Part shown: piece after piece, positions 2,880 to 23,802 of the stretch
How positions within the stretch are numbered: the first letter of the stretch is position 1
Layout: every line of letters begins with the position of its first letter
Position numbers and translations under genes: made by a program
Assembly: GCA_022826345.1 (NCBI GenBank)
Contig: JAJDVB010000009.1
Coordinates: forward strand, 1 to 23,802
DNA length: 23,802 nt
Reading direction: 5' to 3'
From: Alphaproteobacteria bacterium
GTDB taxonomy: Bacteria; Pseudomonadota; Alphaproteobacteria; UBA828
Notes under the pieces: model-generated
Seen by the model: only the letters and a program-made list of their open reading frames with translations
Databases searched by the model: none
Told to the model about the DNA's origin: nothing

Positions 2880-5800
2880 ATGGTCGCGACCGTCACACGC
2901 CTGAAGGCCGCGGCCACGACGGTGCACTACTTCGAGGTGGACGGGTACTACGCGAAGAACGACCCGGAACATCGCAAGGCGAGCCGCTGGTACGGCGAGG
3001 CGGCGGCGCTTCTGGGCCTGCACGGGACGGTCAAGCCGAACCGCTTCGAGAGCGTGTTGGCCGGCTACGTGCCCGGAACCGACCTTCGTCTCGGGCGGAT
3101 GCGCGACGGCGAGCACCAGCACCGGCCGGGCGTGGACGTGACCTTCTCGGCGCCCAAGTCGGTATCCCTGGAGGCGCTGGTCTACGCGGCGCCCAAGACC
3201 CGCGCAAGGGTGGTGCGGGCGCACGACGAGGCTGTGAGCGCCACTCTGGGCTTCATCGAGGCGGAGCTGCTCCAGACCCGGAGCTATGACCCCCGGACCG
3301 GGCGCAGGCCTCGCGTGCAGGCCGACGGCATGGTGGCGGCGACTTTCCGCCACCTGGCGAGCCGCAACCTGGACCCTCAGCTTCACACGCACGCTGTGAT
3401 CGCCAACATGACGCGCGGCCGGGACGGGGACTGGCGCAGCGCCGAGTTCACCTCGGTGGAACGGTCCAAGCTCCTGATCGGGGCCTACTACCGCAACGAG
3501 CTCCGGACCCGACTCGAAGCACTCGGCTACGCCACAGTGCCGACCCTGGTGGGCCGGATGCCGGGGTTCGAGATCGCGGGCTACGAACGGCCAATGCTGG
3601 ACGCATTCTCGACCCGGCGCCGGGAGCTCCTGGACTACATGGCCGACCGTGGCTGGGAGAACACACCCGCCAGGACACAGCAGGCGGCGCTCTACACGCG
3701 GCGGCGCAAGGCGGAGCCGGAGCGGCAGGTCCTGCACGAGACGTGGCAGGAGAGGGCCCAAGAACTCGGCCCGGCGCGGGACCAGGACATCGCAAGGGGC
3801 CGCAACGGCGTTGGCGCATCGGCCTCCCTGCAGAGCGAGCTACGAGCCTACCCATCGGCGCTGTCGGTGGTGCGGCGTGCCGTGGAGCACCTGGAGGAAC
3901 GGTGCACCGTGTTCTCCGCCAACGACCTGCGCGCCTGGGCGCTGGCGCACGGGGGAGGACAGCACTCGCTCGAAGCGCTGGATGCCGGCATCGCTCAACT
4001 GCGGCGCGACAGGCACCTGATCGAGGTGACGGCGAGGCGGGCGGACCTGGCCTTCGTCACCGACCGGGCGCGCAATGCCGAACGCGACATCATCGCCGGC
4101 ATGCGCGCGGGCCTGGACGCCGGGCGGAGCCTGGCACCCGCCGCTGCGGTCGAGGCCGGGCTGGGGGAGGCCGGTTTGAACCCCGGTCAGCGCGACGCGG
4201 CGCGCGCGATCCTGCTCTCGCCCCACCGGACCGTGGGGGTGCAGGGCCACGCGGGCTCCGGCAAGACGACCATGCTGCGCGCGGTGAAAGAGCTGGCGGG
4301 CGAGAATCGGATCATCGGCCTGGCCCCGTCGGCGAGCGCGGTTCATGTGCTGGCGGGCGAAGCCGACATCCCGGCCCGCACGCTACAGGGGTTCCTCACA
4401 CGCTACCGCGACGTGGGCGACGGCATCGCCCCACCCGAGAAGACGGAGGAGGCGCGCAAGGCCCTGGGCGGCGCGGTGCTGATCCTCGACGAGGCGTCGA
4501 TGGTCGGCACCGTGCAGATGCGGGCGCTGACGCGCATCGCGTCGCAGACCGACGTGGCGCGGATGGCCTTGATCGGCGACCGCAGGCAGTTGCGGTCGGT
4601 GGAGGCCGGCCAGCCCTTCGGCCTGCTGCAGGACGCGGGCATGCCCACGGCACGGATGGACGAGGTGGTGCGCCAGCGCGACGCCGACCTGCGGGCCGCG
4701 GTGCTGCACATGGTGGCGGACGAGCCGCGCATGGCGGTGGAGGAGCTCGGCAACGGCGTCCTGGAGACGGAGAGCGACGAGCTTGGCAGGAAGGCGGCGC
4801 AACTCTGGCTCGACCTCGATCCGGACCTGCGCGCCGGGACGGCGATCCTGGCGCCCACGCACGAGCTCAGGGCCGAGATCAACGATGCCGTCCGCCACGG
4901 CCTGGAAGACGAGGGCGTGCTGCACGGTCCCGCGCTGGAGATCGAACGCTACGTCAACCTGCACCTGACGCGCTCGCAGAAGGGCGAGGTCGCGAACTAC
5001 CGGCCGGGGGACGTCGCGGTCTTCCACCACGACGGCTACGGCGTCAAGGCCAGGGCCGGCGACGCCTGCCGCGTGCTGGAGGCACAGGACGACGGGCACG
5101 TGCTGCTGGCGCATCCCGACGGCGGGGAGCGGCGAATCGACCCGGGCGGCTACATCCGCTACCGGCTCGACCTCTACGAGACCCGTCCGATGGTGCTGAG
5201 AGCCGGAGACCAGGTGCGCTGGACCCGCAACGATACTGTGCGCGGCCTCATCAACGGCGAACATGCACGGGTGCTCTCAATCGGCCCGGTGAACGTGAGG
5301 ATGCGCACGCAGGACGGCCGCGAGATCGCCATGGCGCGCGACGATCCGCAGCTTCACCATCTGGACCACGCCTACTCCTCGACCGTGCACGCCGCGCAGG
5401 GCCTCACCTGCGACCGGGTGATCGCGGTGCTGGACACGGACCGGGGCGCGCCGGCCGACCAGGCGATGTTCTACGTGGAGCTCACGCGCGCCCGCGACAA
5501 CGTGGTGCTGCTGACGGACGACCGCGAGGCGCTGATCGAGGCGCTGGAGACGGCGCCTGCGGAGGAGCTGTCGGCGCTCAGGGCTATCGGCGAGCAGTTC
5601 GAGACCTCCTCCCCGGCGGAGACCACTTCTCAGCGCGCGCCGCCTGAGAGGGAAGATGTTCTGAACGAGGCGTCGAGGGAGCGGCGCAGAGAGGCGGCGC
5701 GCTTCGTCGATCGAACCCTGTCGGCGGTAGCGGCCTCGCTCCGGGAGCGTGACGAGCGCGCCCGCGAAGCCCACACGCACGACGCTCATGTCACCCTGGC

Positions 5801-6104
5801 ACCGGGCTATGCCGAGTGGCGCAAGGGCGCGCGGCGGTCGCTCGCCGACTGCCGCAAGATCCTCGACGATCCCGAGACCCGCGGGCATCTCGACCGCCGT
5901 CCCGGCGCGACCGACGAGATGAAACGGCTGTCGGCGCGGATCGAGTCCGACCTCAAGTCCGACGGTGCCGAGATCGAACGCCGTCAAAAGCAGCAGGACC
6001 AGCAACAACTGGAAGAGCAGAAACGGAAGCGCGAAAAGCAGGAGCAGCAGGAGCAGGAACGCCGGAAGGCGAAGACGCGCGACCGCGGCGGTCTCTCGAT
6101 GTGA
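2880..6104 (+). CDS. Conjugative relaxase-helicase, MobF family (TrwC/TraI type)
   Basis: 1074 aa, a complete MobF relaxase. The N-terminal relaxase domain (about 1-300) has the paired nicking tyrosines at GYY (Y23, Y24), the TFSAPKSVSLEALV motif, and the metal-binding histidine triad H158, H169 and H171 (FRH and QLHTHAVIANM). The middle and C-terminal parts form a RecD-like SF1 helicase: Walker A GHAGSGKTT (456-464), Walker B LILDEAS (D537, E538), HAAQG (837-841) and the late motif FYVELTRARDNVVLL. The last about 45 residues are a Gln/Glu/Lys-rich helix. These enzymes cut oriT, stay bound to the 5' end through tyrosine, and unwind the strand during transfer. The start at ATG 2880 lacks a clear ribosome site and is probably coupled to the preceding gene. 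Architecture and length match intact family members; no frameshift is seen. Confidence 0.95.
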   Translation: MVATVTRLKAAATTVHYFEVDGYYAKNDPEHRKASRWYGEAAALLGLHGTVKPNRFESVLAGYVPGTDLRLGRMRDGEHQHRPGVDVTFSAPKSVSLEALVYAAPKTRARVVRAHDEAVSATLGFIEAELLQTRSYDPRTGRRPRVQADGMVAATFRHLASRNLDPQLHTHAVIANMTRGRDGDWRSAEFTSVERSKLLIGAYYRNELRTRLEALGYATVPTLVGRMPGFEIAGYERPMLDAFSTRRRELLDYMADRGWENTPARTQQAALYTRRRKAEPERQVLHETWQERAQELGPARDQDIARGRNGVGASASLQSELRAYPSALSVVRRAVEHLEERCTVFSANDLRAWALAHGGGQHSLEALDAGIAQLRRDRHLIEVTARRADLAFVTDRARNAERDIIAGMRAGLDAGRSLAPAAAVEAGLGEAGLNPGQRDAARAILLSPHRTVGVQGHAGSGKTTMLRAVKELAGENRIIGLAPSASAVHVLAGEADIPARTLQGFLTRYRDVGDGIAPPEKTEEARKALGGAVLILDEASMVGTVQMRALTRIASQTDVARMALIGDRRQLRSVEAGQPFGLLQDAGMPTARMDEVVRQRDADLRAAVLHMVADEPRMAVEELGNGVLETESDELGRKAAQLWLDLDPDLRAGTAILAPTHELRAEINDAVRHGLEDEGVLHGPALEIERYVNLHLTRSQKGEVANYRPGDVAVFHHDGYGVKARAGDACRVLEAQDDGHVLLAHPDGGERRIDPGGYIRYRLDLYETRPMVLRAGDQVRWTRNDTVRGLINGEHARVLSIGPVNVRMRTQDGREIAMARDDPQLHHLDHAYSSTVHAAQGLTCDRVIAVLDTDRGAPADQAMFYVELTRARDNVVLLTDDREALIEALETAPAEELSALRAIGEQFETSSPAETTSQRAPPEREDVLNEASRERRREAARFVDRTLSAVAASLRERDERAREAHTHDAHVTLAPGYAEWRKGARRSLADCRKILDDPETRGHLDRRPGATDEMKRLSARIESDLKSDGAEIERRQKQQDQQQLEEQKRKREKQEQQEQERRKAKTRDRGGLSM

Positions 6105-22292: not shown

Positions 22293-22303
22293 GCGCCCCC
22301 TCC

Positions 22304-23095
22304 TCACTTGGGCCCGAGGGACAGGATCGATGTGGGGCTGGTGCGATACACCCGCGGAGCGATTTCCGTCCAGGATTCATAGTGATTAGCCGGGCTCGAG
22401 TGGGATTCGCCGGGATTGTCCGGGACAGCGGGGAACTCTGCGGGATTCCACGGGTCCACCGGCACCGACGTCACGGTGCGGGGAGCAGGCGGCGGCGGGG
22501 GCGGATCGCCCTCCACCTCCGCCCGGATGATGGCGACCGCCTCCGGCGAGAGCCCGCCCTGGCCCTTGGCCCGGCCGGCGGACTTGGCCTTCTCCGCCTT
22601 CGCCTTCTCCGCTGCGCGTTCCCGGTCCTTGCGGAGCTTCTCGGTGGCCTCGATGCGCTTGAGGATGTGGGAGAGTCGGGCAAGCTCCTCCGTCGACACG
22701 GGCTCTTCCCGCGCGCTGAGATCGGCCATGGTGGCGAGCACCATCGTTTGCAGCGTCTCGATCAGGATGGGCCCGGCGCCGCCCTCCGGGCGCTCGCCCA
22801 GCGCGTCCACCCACGCCTTGATGGTGCGGTCGGTCTCCTGCTGCTTGCGGATCAGGTCGTGCATGTTCTTGGCGTAGCGGCCGACGGCCGAGCGCGAGCA
22901 GTCCTCGCCCCCCGCCCTGATGCGGGCTGTGATCTGGTCGATGGTGGCGCCGTCGGCGATGGCCTGATCGACGGCCTCGCGGAGCTTGGGCGGCAGACGC
23001 TTGACGGAGGAGCGACTGGATGCCGCGGCCGGCGTGGTCTGTCGGGTTTCGTTCTGCATGGCGTGGACGTGCTCGCGGGTGGTGTTGTGGCTCAT
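22304..23095 (-). CDS. Mu gp27-like protein (DUF3486), orphan phage gene
   Basis: 263 aa from ATG 23095 (MSHNTTREHVHAM); starts at 23170 or 23059 are also possible. The core resembles DUF3486: KRLPPKLREAVDQAIADGAT, then IDQITARI, SRSAVGRYAKNM, QETDRTIKAWVDALGERPEGG, and a helix around ILIETLQTMVLATMADLSARE. In Mu the gp27 position belongs to the DNA-packaging genes and is taken as small-terminase-like. A Lys/Ala/Glu-rich helix (KLRKDRERAAEKAKAEKAKS) and a long Pro-rich tail (DPPPPPPAPRTV) follow and are not typical of the family. No other Mu genes are in the window on either side, so it is either the end of a prophage remnant or a domesticated gene. Confidence 0.75.
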   Translation of the reverse strand: MSHNTTREHVHAMQNETRQTTPAAASSRSSVKRLPPKLREAVDQAIADGATIDQITARIRAGGEDCSRSAVGRYAKNMHDLIRKQQETDRTIKAWVDALGERPEGGAGPILIETLQTMVLATMADLSAREEPVSTEELARLSHILKRIEATEKLRKDRERAAEKAKAEKAKSAGRAKGQGGLSPEAVAIIRAEVEGDPPPPPPAPRTVTSVPVDPWNPAEFPAVPDNPGESHSSPANHYESWTEIAPRVYRTSPTSILSLGPK

Positions 23096-23171
23096 CCCGC
23101 AATGCTGCCCCACGCCGCCCACGCCCTCTACCGCACCATGGTCCGGGGAGTCGCGCACGCCCTCCCCCACT

Positions 23172-23201
23172 CGTCATGCGCGGACTTGATCCGCGCATCC
23201 A
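23172..23201 (+). repeat. REP palindrome 1
   Basis: CGTCATGCGCGGACTTGATC followed by CGCGCATCCA. The stem ATGCGCGGA / TCCGCGCAT has nine perfect pairs. A C-rich CTCCCCC precedes it, as in REP 3. Short extragenic palindromes of this form are common in Alphaproteobacteria. In frame it reads MRGLDPRIH, a well-known false peptide in annotations. Confidence 0.8.
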
Positions 23202-23225
23202 TTTCGGCCCCGTGCGGCGGCGCGA

Positions 23226-23257
23226 CGTGGATGGCCGCAACAAGTGCGGCCATGACG
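23226..23257 (-). repeat. REP palindrome 2 (inverted orientation)
   Basis: On the plus strand it starts CGTGGATGGCCGCAACAAG and ends TGCGGCCATGACG: the reverse of the REP type, with stem ATGGCCGCA / TGCGGCCAT, nine pairs. The stem bases differ from REPs 1 and 3 but pairing is kept, so the fold is conserved rather than the sequence. Confidence 0.75.
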
Positions 23258-23300
23258 AGAGGAGATCGGTGCGTGTTCTCTTCGACCTCACTCCCCCCTT

Positions 23301-23330
23301 CGTCATGCGCGGACTTGTTCCGCGCATCCA
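23301..23330 (+). repeat. REP palindrome 3, just upstream of the GIY-YIG gene
   Basis: Same as REP 1 except for one loop base (CTTGTT in place of CTTGAT), with stem ATGCGCGG / CCGCGCAT. It ends 20 bases before the GIY-YIG start and is in the same reading frame. Confidence 0.8.
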
Positions 23331-23349
23331 CGGCTTGCAGCATAGCGAC

Positions 23350-23637
23350 ATGAGCGGAGGCTGGGTCTACATCATGACCAACCGACCCAACGGCACGCTC
23401 TATCTCGGCGTGACCAGCGACATCGCGCGCAGGGCGTGGGAACACCGCGAAGGCCTGGTTGAAGGGTTCACCAAGAGGTACGACCTGACCCGGCTCGTCT
23501 ACGCGGAGCGCCATGATGAGATCGCCACAGCCATCCAGCGGGAGCGGACCTTGAAGCACTGGCCGCGCGCCTGGAAGGTCAGACTCATCCGCAAACAGAA
23601 CCCCGATTGGGACGACCTTTACGAAACCCTGCCGTAG
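23350..23637 (+). CDS. Small GIY-YIG nuclease-domain protein
   Basis: 95 aa, one complete GIY-YIG domain of the UPF0213/YhbQ kind. The first strand is WVYIM (GIY position: V6-Y7-I8), the second LYLG (YIG position: Y18-L19-G20); the catalytic Arg is R27 in SDIARRAWEH, followed by H32, and the metal-binding Glu is E65 in AIQRERTLKHW. It ends NPDWDDLY. All usual catalytic positions are present. Start ATG 23350 fits the family, though the ribosome site is weak; an ATG inside REP 3 (23305) is in frame and would add MRGLVPRIHGLQHSD. The gene is enclosed by REP palindromes pointing inwards (REP 3 before, half REP 4 after). Function of these one-domain proteins is unsettled; DNA cleavage at hairpins is a reasonable guess. 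Confidence 0.88.
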   Translation: MSGGWVYIMTNRPNGTLYLGVTSDIARRAWEHREGLVEGFTKRYDLTRLVYAERHDEIATAIQRERTLKHWPRAWKVRLIRKQNPDWDDLYETLP

Positions 23638-23650
23638 CCTTGCGGGGAGA

Positions 23651-23672
23651 CGTGGATGCCCGGAACGAGTCC
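23651..23672 (-). repeat. REP palindrome 4, truncated by the insertion sequence
   Basis: CGTGGATGCCCGGAACGAGT continues with CC and then stops matching. A full REP would go on with GGGCATGACG to complete the ATGCCCGGA stem. It begins 14 bases after the GIY-YIG stop, in inverted orientation to REP 3. The lost half coincides with the start of the IS. Confidence 0.7.
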
Positions 23673-23705
23673 ACTGCTGTCCGGTTTAGAGGGGTGGACA
23701 AGGTG

Positions 23706-23775
23706 CATGACATTGATTCTATTCGTCTCCGGACGTTTTGCGGCGTTCTGGACACGAACGGAGGTCAATGTCATG
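23706..23775. promoter_or_regulatory. Inverted repeat that includes the transposase start codon
   Basis: CATGACATTGA (23706-23716) and TCAATGTCATG (23765-23775) are perfect 11-base reverse complements, 48 bases apart. The right arm covers the bases from just after the Shine-Dalgarno GGAGG (23760-23764) to the ATG at 23773-23775. A transcript containing both arms could hide the start codon; one starting between the arms could not. Confidence 0.65.
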
Positions 23776-23802
23776 CGGCACCAGAATAGCGTCTTTCATC
23801 AG
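23773..23802 (+). CDS. IS4-family transposase, first 10 codons only
   Basis: ATG 23773 with GGAGG eight bases upstream. The ten residues MRHQNSVFHQ match the usual start of an IS4-type transposase group (M-x-H-x-N-S-V-F-H). The rest is outside the window, so activity cannot be judged. Recognition rests on a short but distinctive N-terminus and on the IS-like end upstream. Confidence 0.6.
   Translation, partial: MRHQNSVFHQ

What the first reader, a model, noticed from the sequence alone, without database searches (positions are those of the whole stretch)
23172..23672. GIY-YIG nuclease gene enclosed by inverted REP palindromes: possible REP-mobilizing unit
Four REP-type palindromes in alternating orientation (+,-,+, then - after the gene) lie within 500 bases, and a single-domain GIY-YIG gene sits exactly between REP 3 (20 bases upstream) and inverted REP 4 (14 bases downstream). 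REPs elsewhere are known to be associated with RAYT transposases of the Y1 type. No RAYT is seen here; the GIY-YIG protein, with intact catalytic residues, occupies the equivalent place. Hypothesis: this domain family recognises or cuts REP hairpins and helps spread them, or the REP pair plus gene moves as a unit.
Basis: partly seen in the sequence, partly recalled or inferred. Interest (0 to 1): 0.75.

Follow-up and report, generated by a model that had tools for sequence, protein, structure and literature searches.

The report
Nuclease gene paired with repeat palindromes
A tiny DNA-cutting enzyme gene sits between the short hairpin repeats that litter many bacterial genomes, such genes tend to have their own matching repeat family, and the pair looks like the long-missing engine that spreads these repeats.

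Summary
The REP/GIY-YIG pairing is not local. Among 80 alphaproteobacterial relatives, REPs lie within 200 nt on both sides of 46 of 73 testable genes, against 2 of 401 control ORFs; ParE and RAYT loci scored 0 of 30 and 0 of 10. Flanking palindromes match each other better than those of paralogues in the same genome (p=8e-8), and protein and REP co-vary (rho 0.67). Two paralogues in one genome each sit in their own dispersed REP class. REP dimers, and in one pair of species the gene-bearing unit, are bounded exactly by the CGTC tags. In two loci a REP dimer is the gene unit with its interior deleted. Sites lacking the block exist. [quoted passage not shown] From memory only: Neisseria's GIY-YIG nuclease 'Ssn' (2025) is reported to cut its own repeats as single strands, so the pairing may be partly known; a Neisseria homologue is REP-flanked here. 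Cleavage and transposition were not tested.

The parts
23172..23203 (+). REP1, intact CGTC-tagged palindrome (9-bp stem, 5-nt loop)
   Evidence: structural scan; pattern match
23226..23257 (-). REP2, intact CGTC-tagged palindrome with a different stem
23172..23257 (.). REP1-REP2 inverted dimer (86 bp), a dispersed unit with exact CGTC...GACG ends
   Evidence: 98% identical copy in another context in a related MAG; 15 end-to-end copies (window included) with first/last 30 nt 91-92% identical and outside flanks 31% identical
23301..23332 (+). REP3, intact CGTC-tagged palindrome 17 nt before the gene
23350..23637 (+). single-domain GIY-YIG nuclease gene, 95 aa
   Evidence: Pfam PF01541, conserved residues, AlphaFold model pLDDT 92.9, UPF0213/Slx1/UvrC fold matches, only the UPF0213 one with E below 0.001
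23651..23682 (-). REP4, decayed REP: 3' half kept, 5' half and tag lost
   Evidence: 24 of 32 matches to REP3, 20 shuffled windows 19-22; repeat D2
22304..23170 (-). neighbouring Mu Gp27-like ORF; in relative L001 the same gene adjoins the GIY-YIG unit in the opposite relative orientation
   Evidence: PF11985 E=1e-29 on 22304-23092; blastn of window to L001

Best explanation
The block is a REP-plus-nuclease element: a one-domain GIY-YIG endonuclease with its own class of CGTC-tagged palindromes as cis sites. It works like a RAYT/REPIN 'REPtron' but with an unrelated enzyme. Shown: the association across many genera, gene-specific matching of flanking palindromes, protein/REP covariation, dispersed dimers with exact tag-to-tag ends, one gene-bearing unit with exact tag-to-tag ends at two unrelated places, dimers that are the gene unit with its interior deleted, and presence/absence of the block between relatives. 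Inferred: the protein recognises the tagged hairpin when it is single-stranded (for example on the lagging-strand template or in a cruciform), cuts near the tag, and host replication or repair then copies, inverts, deletes or re-inserts the REP-bounded segment. GIY-YIG enzymes are not known to me to make a covalent DNA intermediate, so strand transfer would be left to the host. Gene-bearing units would be the autonomous form and REP dimers the MITE-like form mobilised in trans.
For: Flanking (73 of the 80 loci, those with 260 nt on both sides): both sides 46 and either side 65, against 2 and 44 of 401 control ORFs; REP density 9.0 and 11.5 per kb within 50 nt, 0.06 and 0.11 per kb beyond 2 kb. 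Sample not chosen by closeness to the window: 88 genes in 144 class genomes, 46 with a tagged palindrome within 200 nt on either side, 23 on both; of 45 that the strict CGTC scan missed, 20 have upstream and inverted downstream flanks more alike than with any of the other 44 loci. Controls ParE 0 of 30 loci (13 of them in REP-positive genomes), RAYT 0 of 10 (6 in REP-positive genomes). Own-flank inverted similarity exceeds that of paralogues in the same genome, 18.2 vs 10.2, own above best paralogue in 44 of 65, p=8e-8. Mantel rho 0.67, 0 of 1000 permutations, n=99. Co-occurrence of REPs and gene in 144 genomes: 32 both, 8 REP only, 22 gene only, 82 neither, p=2e-10. Two paralogue-specific dispersed REP classes in one genome, 19 and 13 copies, control 0. 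Exact-ended dimers. A gene-bearing unit in two Bradyrhizobium species at unrelated places, DNA similarity running from the first base of one REP to 2 bases past the other. Dimers carrying the gene's 3' end in L285 and L022, and three 3'-end fragments in L176. Sites lacking the block: Azospirillum, Sinorhizobium, Bradyrhizobium.
Against: No biochemistry. No target-site duplication seen and no base-exact empty site for an intact gene unit. Direction is not always clear: the Sinorhizobium K101 site looks like a deletion scar, i.e. loss rather than gain. At several loci flanks are shared between genera, so the unit can be inherited vertically and moves rarely. 8 of 40 REP-positive genomes had no GIY-YIG hit, two of them with 48 or more REPs. 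42 of 88 genes in the class sample show no tagged palindrome within 200 nt. REP4 of the window itself is decayed. The REP model was trained on REPs near these genes and scored at most 50 candidates per genome, so the co-occurrence test is partly circular. RAYTs too are somewhat commoner in REP-positive genomes (6 of 40 against 3 of 104, p=0.014). Shared ancestry inflates the Mantel value.
Confidence: 0.65

Rival explanations
1. Domesticated site-specific single-strand nuclease of the Ssn type: it cuts its repeats in incoming or replicating single-stranded DNA to shape recombination, and REP spread is caused by something else.
For: A Neisseria gonorrhoeae homologue (52% identity over 91% of the query) is flanked by CGTCATTCCCGC...-type REPs. 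Recalled, not read: Chenal et al. 2025 report that meningococcal Ssn cuts ssDNA at repeats called NTS and modulates transformation. Conserved position across genera at some loci fits a host function.
Against: Multiple copies per genome (11 matches in G121, 10 of them stronger than 1e-20), a tandem identical pair, internally deleted derivatives, a unit with exact ends at two places and blocks that vary between relatives look element-like. It is not exclusive of the best explanation.
Confidence: 0.25
2. REPs are insertion hot spots and the GIY-YIG gene is a passenger that happens to land there.
For: In Bradyrhizobium the same intergenic slot holds the unit in one species and a different REP dimer in its sister. 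Insertion sequences are reported to target REPs (title and start of the abstract of PMC1525189 in the listing).
Against: ParE and RAYT genes are not found beside such REPs (0 of 30, 0 of 10). Flanks are gene-specific within one genome and co-vary with the protein.
Confidence: 0.06
3. The REPs are ordinary 3'/5' regulatory hairpins (terminators, mRNA stabilisers) of the gene.
For: They sit close to start and stop; REPs can stabilise or terminate RNA (established for E. coli, recalled).
Against: Control genes rarely have them on both sides, the same REPs are dispersed genome-wide, and the two sides often carry matched inverted copies.
Confidence: 0.03
4. Chance clustering in a REP-rich genome.
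For: Some genomes hold 150 or more REPs (cap; 190 for one pattern in G009).
Against: About hundredfold local enrichment over distant sequence in the same loci, 0 in shuffles.
Confidence: 0.01

Closest known systems
CGTC-tagged REP superfamily (Di Nocera et al. 2013, PMC3733652; abstract and passages seen)
   Same: Tag, 9-bp stem, 5-nt loop, AT at the stem base, CCA tail, inverted dimers, alphaproteobacterial distribution, Neisseria dRS3 as member
   Different: That paper found no associated transposase ('apparently lack a dedicated transposase'); here a GIY-YIG gene is often adjacent
RAYT (TnpA_REP) with GTAG REPs and REPINs (PMC8266576 passages; PMC3116915 search listing only)
   Same: Single gene flanked by inverted tagged palindromes, enzyme-specific REP class, dispersed REP dimers
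   Different: RAYT is an HUH Y1 enzyme and its tag is GTAG; here GIY-YIG and CGTC. The 10 RAYT loci looked at here have no CGTC-type REP beside them
Ssn family of GIY-YIG site-specific ssDNA nucleases (Chenal et al. 2025; recalled, nothing of it seen: not found or not held)
   Same: One-domain GIY-YIG; Neisseria homologue beside dRS3-type repeats
GIY-YIG proteins UPF0213 (PDB 1zg2, 1ywl), Slx1, UvrC, I-TevI
   Same: Fold (only 1zg2 below E 0.001 in both)
   Different: Low identity (18-26%); none is known to me to be paired with REPs

Membership tests
CGTC-tagged REPs | unpaired CGTC/TGTC tag, 8-9 bp stem, 4-5 nt loop, CCA tail | tested here: met
   REP1-3 of the window; REP4 fails
CGTC-tagged REPs | mostly inverted dimers | tested here: met
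   +- 62, -+ 24, -- 5, ++ 2 among neighbours closer than 120 nt in 80 loci; the paper's HH/TT naming was not mapped
RAYT / REPIN system | HUH Y1 transposase gene | tested here: not met
   gene is PF01541 GIY-YIG; RAYT model over cut-off in 9 of 144 class genomes, 6 of the 40 REP-positive ones
RAYT / REPIN system | GTAG tag | tested here: not met
   tag is CGTC
RAYT / REPIN system | enzyme gene flanked by its own inverted REP class that is dispersed in the genome | tested here: met
   for the family; for the window's own genome, which is not held, only relatives were tested
RAYT / REPIN system | enzyme cleaves single-stranded REP | not testable with these tools
   needs biochemistry
Ssn (recalled definition) | homologous one-domain GIY-YIG beside cognate repeats in Neisseria | tested here: inconclusive
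   homologue at 52% identity, 91% of query, CGTC REPs at 114 and 193 nt upstream and 3 nt downstream; that this gene is the published ssn was not verified
Ssn (recalled definition) | site-specific ssDNA cleavage | not testable with these tools
   needs biochemistry
GIY-YIG superfamily | conserved Tyr, Tyr, Arg, Glu and Asn of the active site (residue roles recalled) | tested here: met
   Y6, Y17, R27, E64, N83 invariant in 20 aligned proteins; fold match

The most novel reading that the evidence does not exclude
The GIY-YIG protein is the missing dedicated enzyme of the CGTC REP superfamily: gene plus inverted REPs is an autonomous minimal element (about 0.4 kb) that spreads with a metal-dependent single-strand nuclease instead of an HUH transposase, and REP dimers are its internally deleted MITEs, mobilised in trans. 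RAYT and GIY-YIG would then be two unrelated enzymes that converged on tagged-hairpin repeats.
Probability: 0.5. Interest if true: 0.87.

Novelty: new variant of a known kind. Interest (0 to 1): 0.73.

Why it matters
Which enzyme spreads the CGTC palindromes of alphaproteobacteria (and Neisseria dRS3) was left open in 2013 (PMC3733652). A gene-specific, paralogue-specific pairing with one small nuclease makes that question directly testable, would give REP/REPIN systems a second and unrelated enzyme class, and would supply a large set of candidate nuclease-recognition pairs for single-stranded DNA.

Tried and rejected
Whole-genome statistics for the window's own genome were impossible. A REP-dimer remnant search with tblastn gave 0 fragments, presumably because composition-based statistics removed short hits; it was repeated without them, one locus at a time, and 7 of 178 loci (some are the same place fetched twice, such as L005 and L081) had a further match: L010 and L058 are full-length second copies, L004 a distant nearly full-length match, L127 an antisense match that I take to be REP-derived, and L022, L176, L285 are the remnants used here. 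A regular expression that counted REP-translated N-termini gave 5 and was badly written; by eye 36 of the 120 proteins have such an extension. The Bradyrhizobium site of L072 is not a clean empty site: the sister genome has another REP dimer there. In G207 a unit like that of L072 is followed by similar downstream sequence; whether this is the same place is unclear and it was not used. The search for a preferred sequence next to the tag gave only a pyrimidine-rich, G-poor stretch. One pairwise-alignment step failed by a script error after printing the BLAST pieces and was replaced. Phage records: one phage, deposited twice, has a weak homologue (35% identity, E=5e-6). ParE and RAYT control loci were taken as centred at base 1501 of each locus; the RAYT locus L235 was cut short so its position is approximate, and RAYT locus L239 is under the curated cut-off.

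In print: the listings of ten text searches show no held paper that I could recognise as linking GIY-YIG proteins to REPs. In PMC3733652, PMC12306157 and PMC5082802 the word GIY does not occur. The library lacks most subscription and non-CC-BY papers.

Full report
What is in the window. The last 650 bases hold three intact CGTC-tagged palindromes at 23172-23203 (+), 23226-23257 (-) and 23301-23332 (+), a 95-residue GIY-YIG gene at 23350-23637, and a decayed fourth REP at 23651-23682 (-) that keeps only its 3' half. The protein is one Pfam GIY-YIG domain. Y6, Y17, R27, E64 and N83 are invariant in 20 relatives (their catalytic roles are recalled). The AlphaFold model has pLDDT 92.9; its best matches are UPF0213 (1zg2, E=3e-4), then, above E 0.05, a second UPF0213, Slx1 and UvrC. 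No NCBIfam model matched it at E 0.001.

The arrangement shows in the proteins themselves. Of the 120 listed relatives (of 7591 found), 36 by my count carry an N-terminal extension such as MPGLVPGIHGLQHG that is a translated REP joined in frame to the gene.

Context in relatives. A structural scan finds 262 REPs in 820 kb, 0 after one mononucleotide shuffle of each locus, and 187 of the 262 lie within 400 nt of the GIY-YIG gene. Density falls from 9.0 (upstream) and 11.5 (downstream) per kb in the first 50 nt to 0.06 and 0.11 per kb beyond 2 kb. Among the 73 loci with 260 nt or more on both sides, 46 have REPs within 200 nt on both sides and 65 on at least one; among 401 other ORFs of the same loci, not within 600 nt of the gene, the numbers are 2 and 44 (the ORFs are mechanical, not curated genes). 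Of 24 loci with a '+ gene -' pair within 100 nt, 13 pairs have identical stem and loop, against 4.4 (maximum 11) when pairs are shuffled.

A sample not chosen by closeness to the window. In 144 class genomes, 54 have a match to the protein profile. I used the 88 matches stronger than 1e-20 and left out 23 weaker or partial rows. With a generalised tag, 46 of 88 have a tagged palindrome within 200 nt on either side, 23 on both, 42 none. Of the 45 that lacked a strict CGTC REP, 20 have upstream and inverted downstream flanks more alike than with any of the other 44 loci, several of them palindromes with a variant tag. Controls: ParE toxin loci 0 of 30, one per genome, 13 of them in REP-positive genomes; RAYT loci 0 of 10, 6 of them in REP-positive genomes. 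REPs detected by a covariance model occur in 40 of the 144 genomes; 32 of these have the GIY-YIG, 22 genomes have the gene without detected REPs, 8 have REPs without the gene (p=2e-10). The model was built from REPs of loci around such genes and only 50 candidates per genome were scored, so this test is partly circular. RAYTs over the curated cut-off occur in 6 of the 40 REP-positive genomes and 3 of the other 104 (p=0.014), ParE in 20 of 40 and 33 of 104 (p=0.054).

Specific pairing. If REPs were just common, flanks would match the genome, not the gene. For 65 genes with a paralogue in the same genome, the inverted similarity of a gene's own two flanks averages 18.2 against 10.2 with the paralogues' flanks (Wilcoxon p=8e-8; own above the best paralogue in 44 of 65). 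Across 99 of 110 loci with a REP (near-identical proteins dropped), protein distance and REP distance correlate with rho 0.67, 0 of 1000 permutations as high (shared ancestry contributes). In G003 (Parvibaculum sedimenti, from L012) one paralogue sits between REPs of a class with 19 copies in the genome and another between REPs of a class with 13 (up to 3 mismatches, flanking copies included), reversed-pattern controls 0.

Mobility of dimers. The window's 86-bp REP1-REP2 dimer recurs at 98% identity in a related MAG, but downstream of its GIY-YIG gene instead of upstream. Fifteen copies (the window plus 14 among 29 fetched loci that align end to end) have first and last 30 nt 91% and 92% identical while outside flanks are 31% identical, close to chance for this composition, so the unit ends at CGTC...GACG. 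No target duplication was evident by eye.

Exact ends of a gene-bearing unit. The unit of L072 (Bradyrhizobium SSBR45G, G015) has a relative in another Bradyrhizobium genome, G261. The DNA similarity runs from query base 1050, the first base of the CGTC tag of one REP, to 1441, two bases past the GACG of the other; the two 30-nt outside flanks are unlike by eye and the proteins are 77% identical. The same piece thus lies at two unrelated places with tag-to-tag ends.

Dimers derived from the gene unit. In L022 a 122-bp REP dimer (1271-1392) equals the neighbouring intact unit (1539-1935) with the interior deleted: same left end, then the last codons of the gene, stop and right REP. In Sinorhizobium meliloti Ak57 a dimer at 1165-1325 of L285 holds the last 27 codons of the gene beside the intact gene, whose own downstream REP is altered. 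L176 has three further 3'-end fragments running into REP or REP-like sequence. These are 3 of 178 loci tested.

Presence and absence. Azospirillum lipoferum 4B carries the unit between sufB and sufC (617 nt apart), while A. ramasamyi, oryzae, sp. B510 and thermophilum have 55-129 nt there and no REP. Of 122 records matched, only the source covers 80% of the query. Sinorhizobium sp. K101 has no gene between the flanks that surround it in S. meliloti Ak57, only REP-like remnants that look like a deletion scar, so this may be loss. In 146 Bradyrhizobium genomes only the source genome is listed with a match over the whole query; its sister with a 92%-identical flank has another REP dimer there (the list was cut). 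Spacers around the Azospirillum unit have diverged, so junctions are not base-exact. At several loci flanks are shared between genera, so the unit can also stay put for long.

Beyond alphaproteobacteria. A tblastn of the plasmid collection hits 34 records, among them a 2.2-Mb N. gonorrhoeae record, evidently a chromosome, at 52% identity whose gene is flanked by CGTCATTCCCGC-type REPs. Of the 13 of 34 records inspected, tagged palindromes lie within 200 nt in Neisseria, Aeromonas, Photobacterium (one side), Azospirillum, Shinella, Sphingobium, Rhizobium CIAT894, S. meliloti and, at 180 nt on one side, R. tumorigenes; Novosphingobium has inverted variant palindromes; none was found for Planktothrix, Spirosoma and Subdoligranulum.

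Relation to what is known. Di Nocera 2013 (abstract and passages) defines the CGTC superfamily, includes Neisseria dRS3, and concludes that it apparently lacks a dedicated transposase; 'GIY' does not occur in it. RAYT enzymes cut single-stranded GTAG REPs (passages). I recall, without having been able to see any of it, a 2025 paper on the GIY-YIG nuclease Ssn of Neisseria meningitidis that cuts its repeat as single-stranded DNA, with homologues that have their own sequences. If so, the core pairing is known, and what is added here is the link to the CGTC REPs of alphaproteobacteria, the counted association, the paralogue-specific pairing, and the element-like behaviour. The listings of ten text searches show no held paper making this link.

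Verdict. Association: very likely real (I would say 0.98). Unit-like element with cognate REPs: likely. Enzyme-driven spread by REP cutting: the best explanation (0.65), not demonstrated.

Noticed in passing
window 23705-23716 and 23765-23776: Perfect 12-nt inverted repeat 48 nt apart just downstream of the block; the window ends before its meaning can be judged.
   Followed up: no
window 2880-6104: 1074-aa ORF whose translation looks like a conjugative relaxase/helicase (judged by eye, not searched), followed by small ORFs of mobilisation type: a possible mobile region at the start of the window.
   Followed up: no
L279 (Planktothrix agardhii plasmid): A GIY-YIG homologue without detected REPs lies between an MmeI-type restriction enzyme and drmA of a DISARM system, a defence-island context.
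   Followed up: no
G121: One alphaproteobacterial genome with 11 profile matches of this GIY-YIG family (10 stronger than 1e-20), several with different flanking palindromes.
   Followed up: partly
G308 C22:168324 and 168946 (L010): Two gene units in tandem, 622 bp apart, whose proteins are identical over the 92 matched residues.
   Followed up: partly
L001 versus window 22303-23201: The same Mu Gp27-like gene adjoins the GIY-YIG unit in both, but with the unit in opposite relative orientation, as if flipped between inverted REPs.
   Followed up: partly
262 REPs of 80 loci: The stretch before the CGTC tag is pyrimidine-rich and G-poor: G 0.08-0.15 at positions -10 to -3, against 0.32 background.
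   Followed up: no
G082 and G094: Genomes with 48 or more CGTC REPs but no GIY-YIG hit: lost enzyme, incomplete assembly, or another enzyme.
   Followed up: no
L072 query region 1530-2057 and L338, L339, L340: Sequence downstream of the Bradyrhizobium unit recurs (about 80-87% identity) elsewhere in the same and other Bradyrhizobium genomes without the gene: another dispersed repeat.
   Followed up: no
plasmid collection NZ_CP119142.1, NZ_AP026896.1, CP090106.1: Records of 2.2, 4.9 and 3.7 Mb labelled as plasmids look like chromosomes.
   Followed up: no
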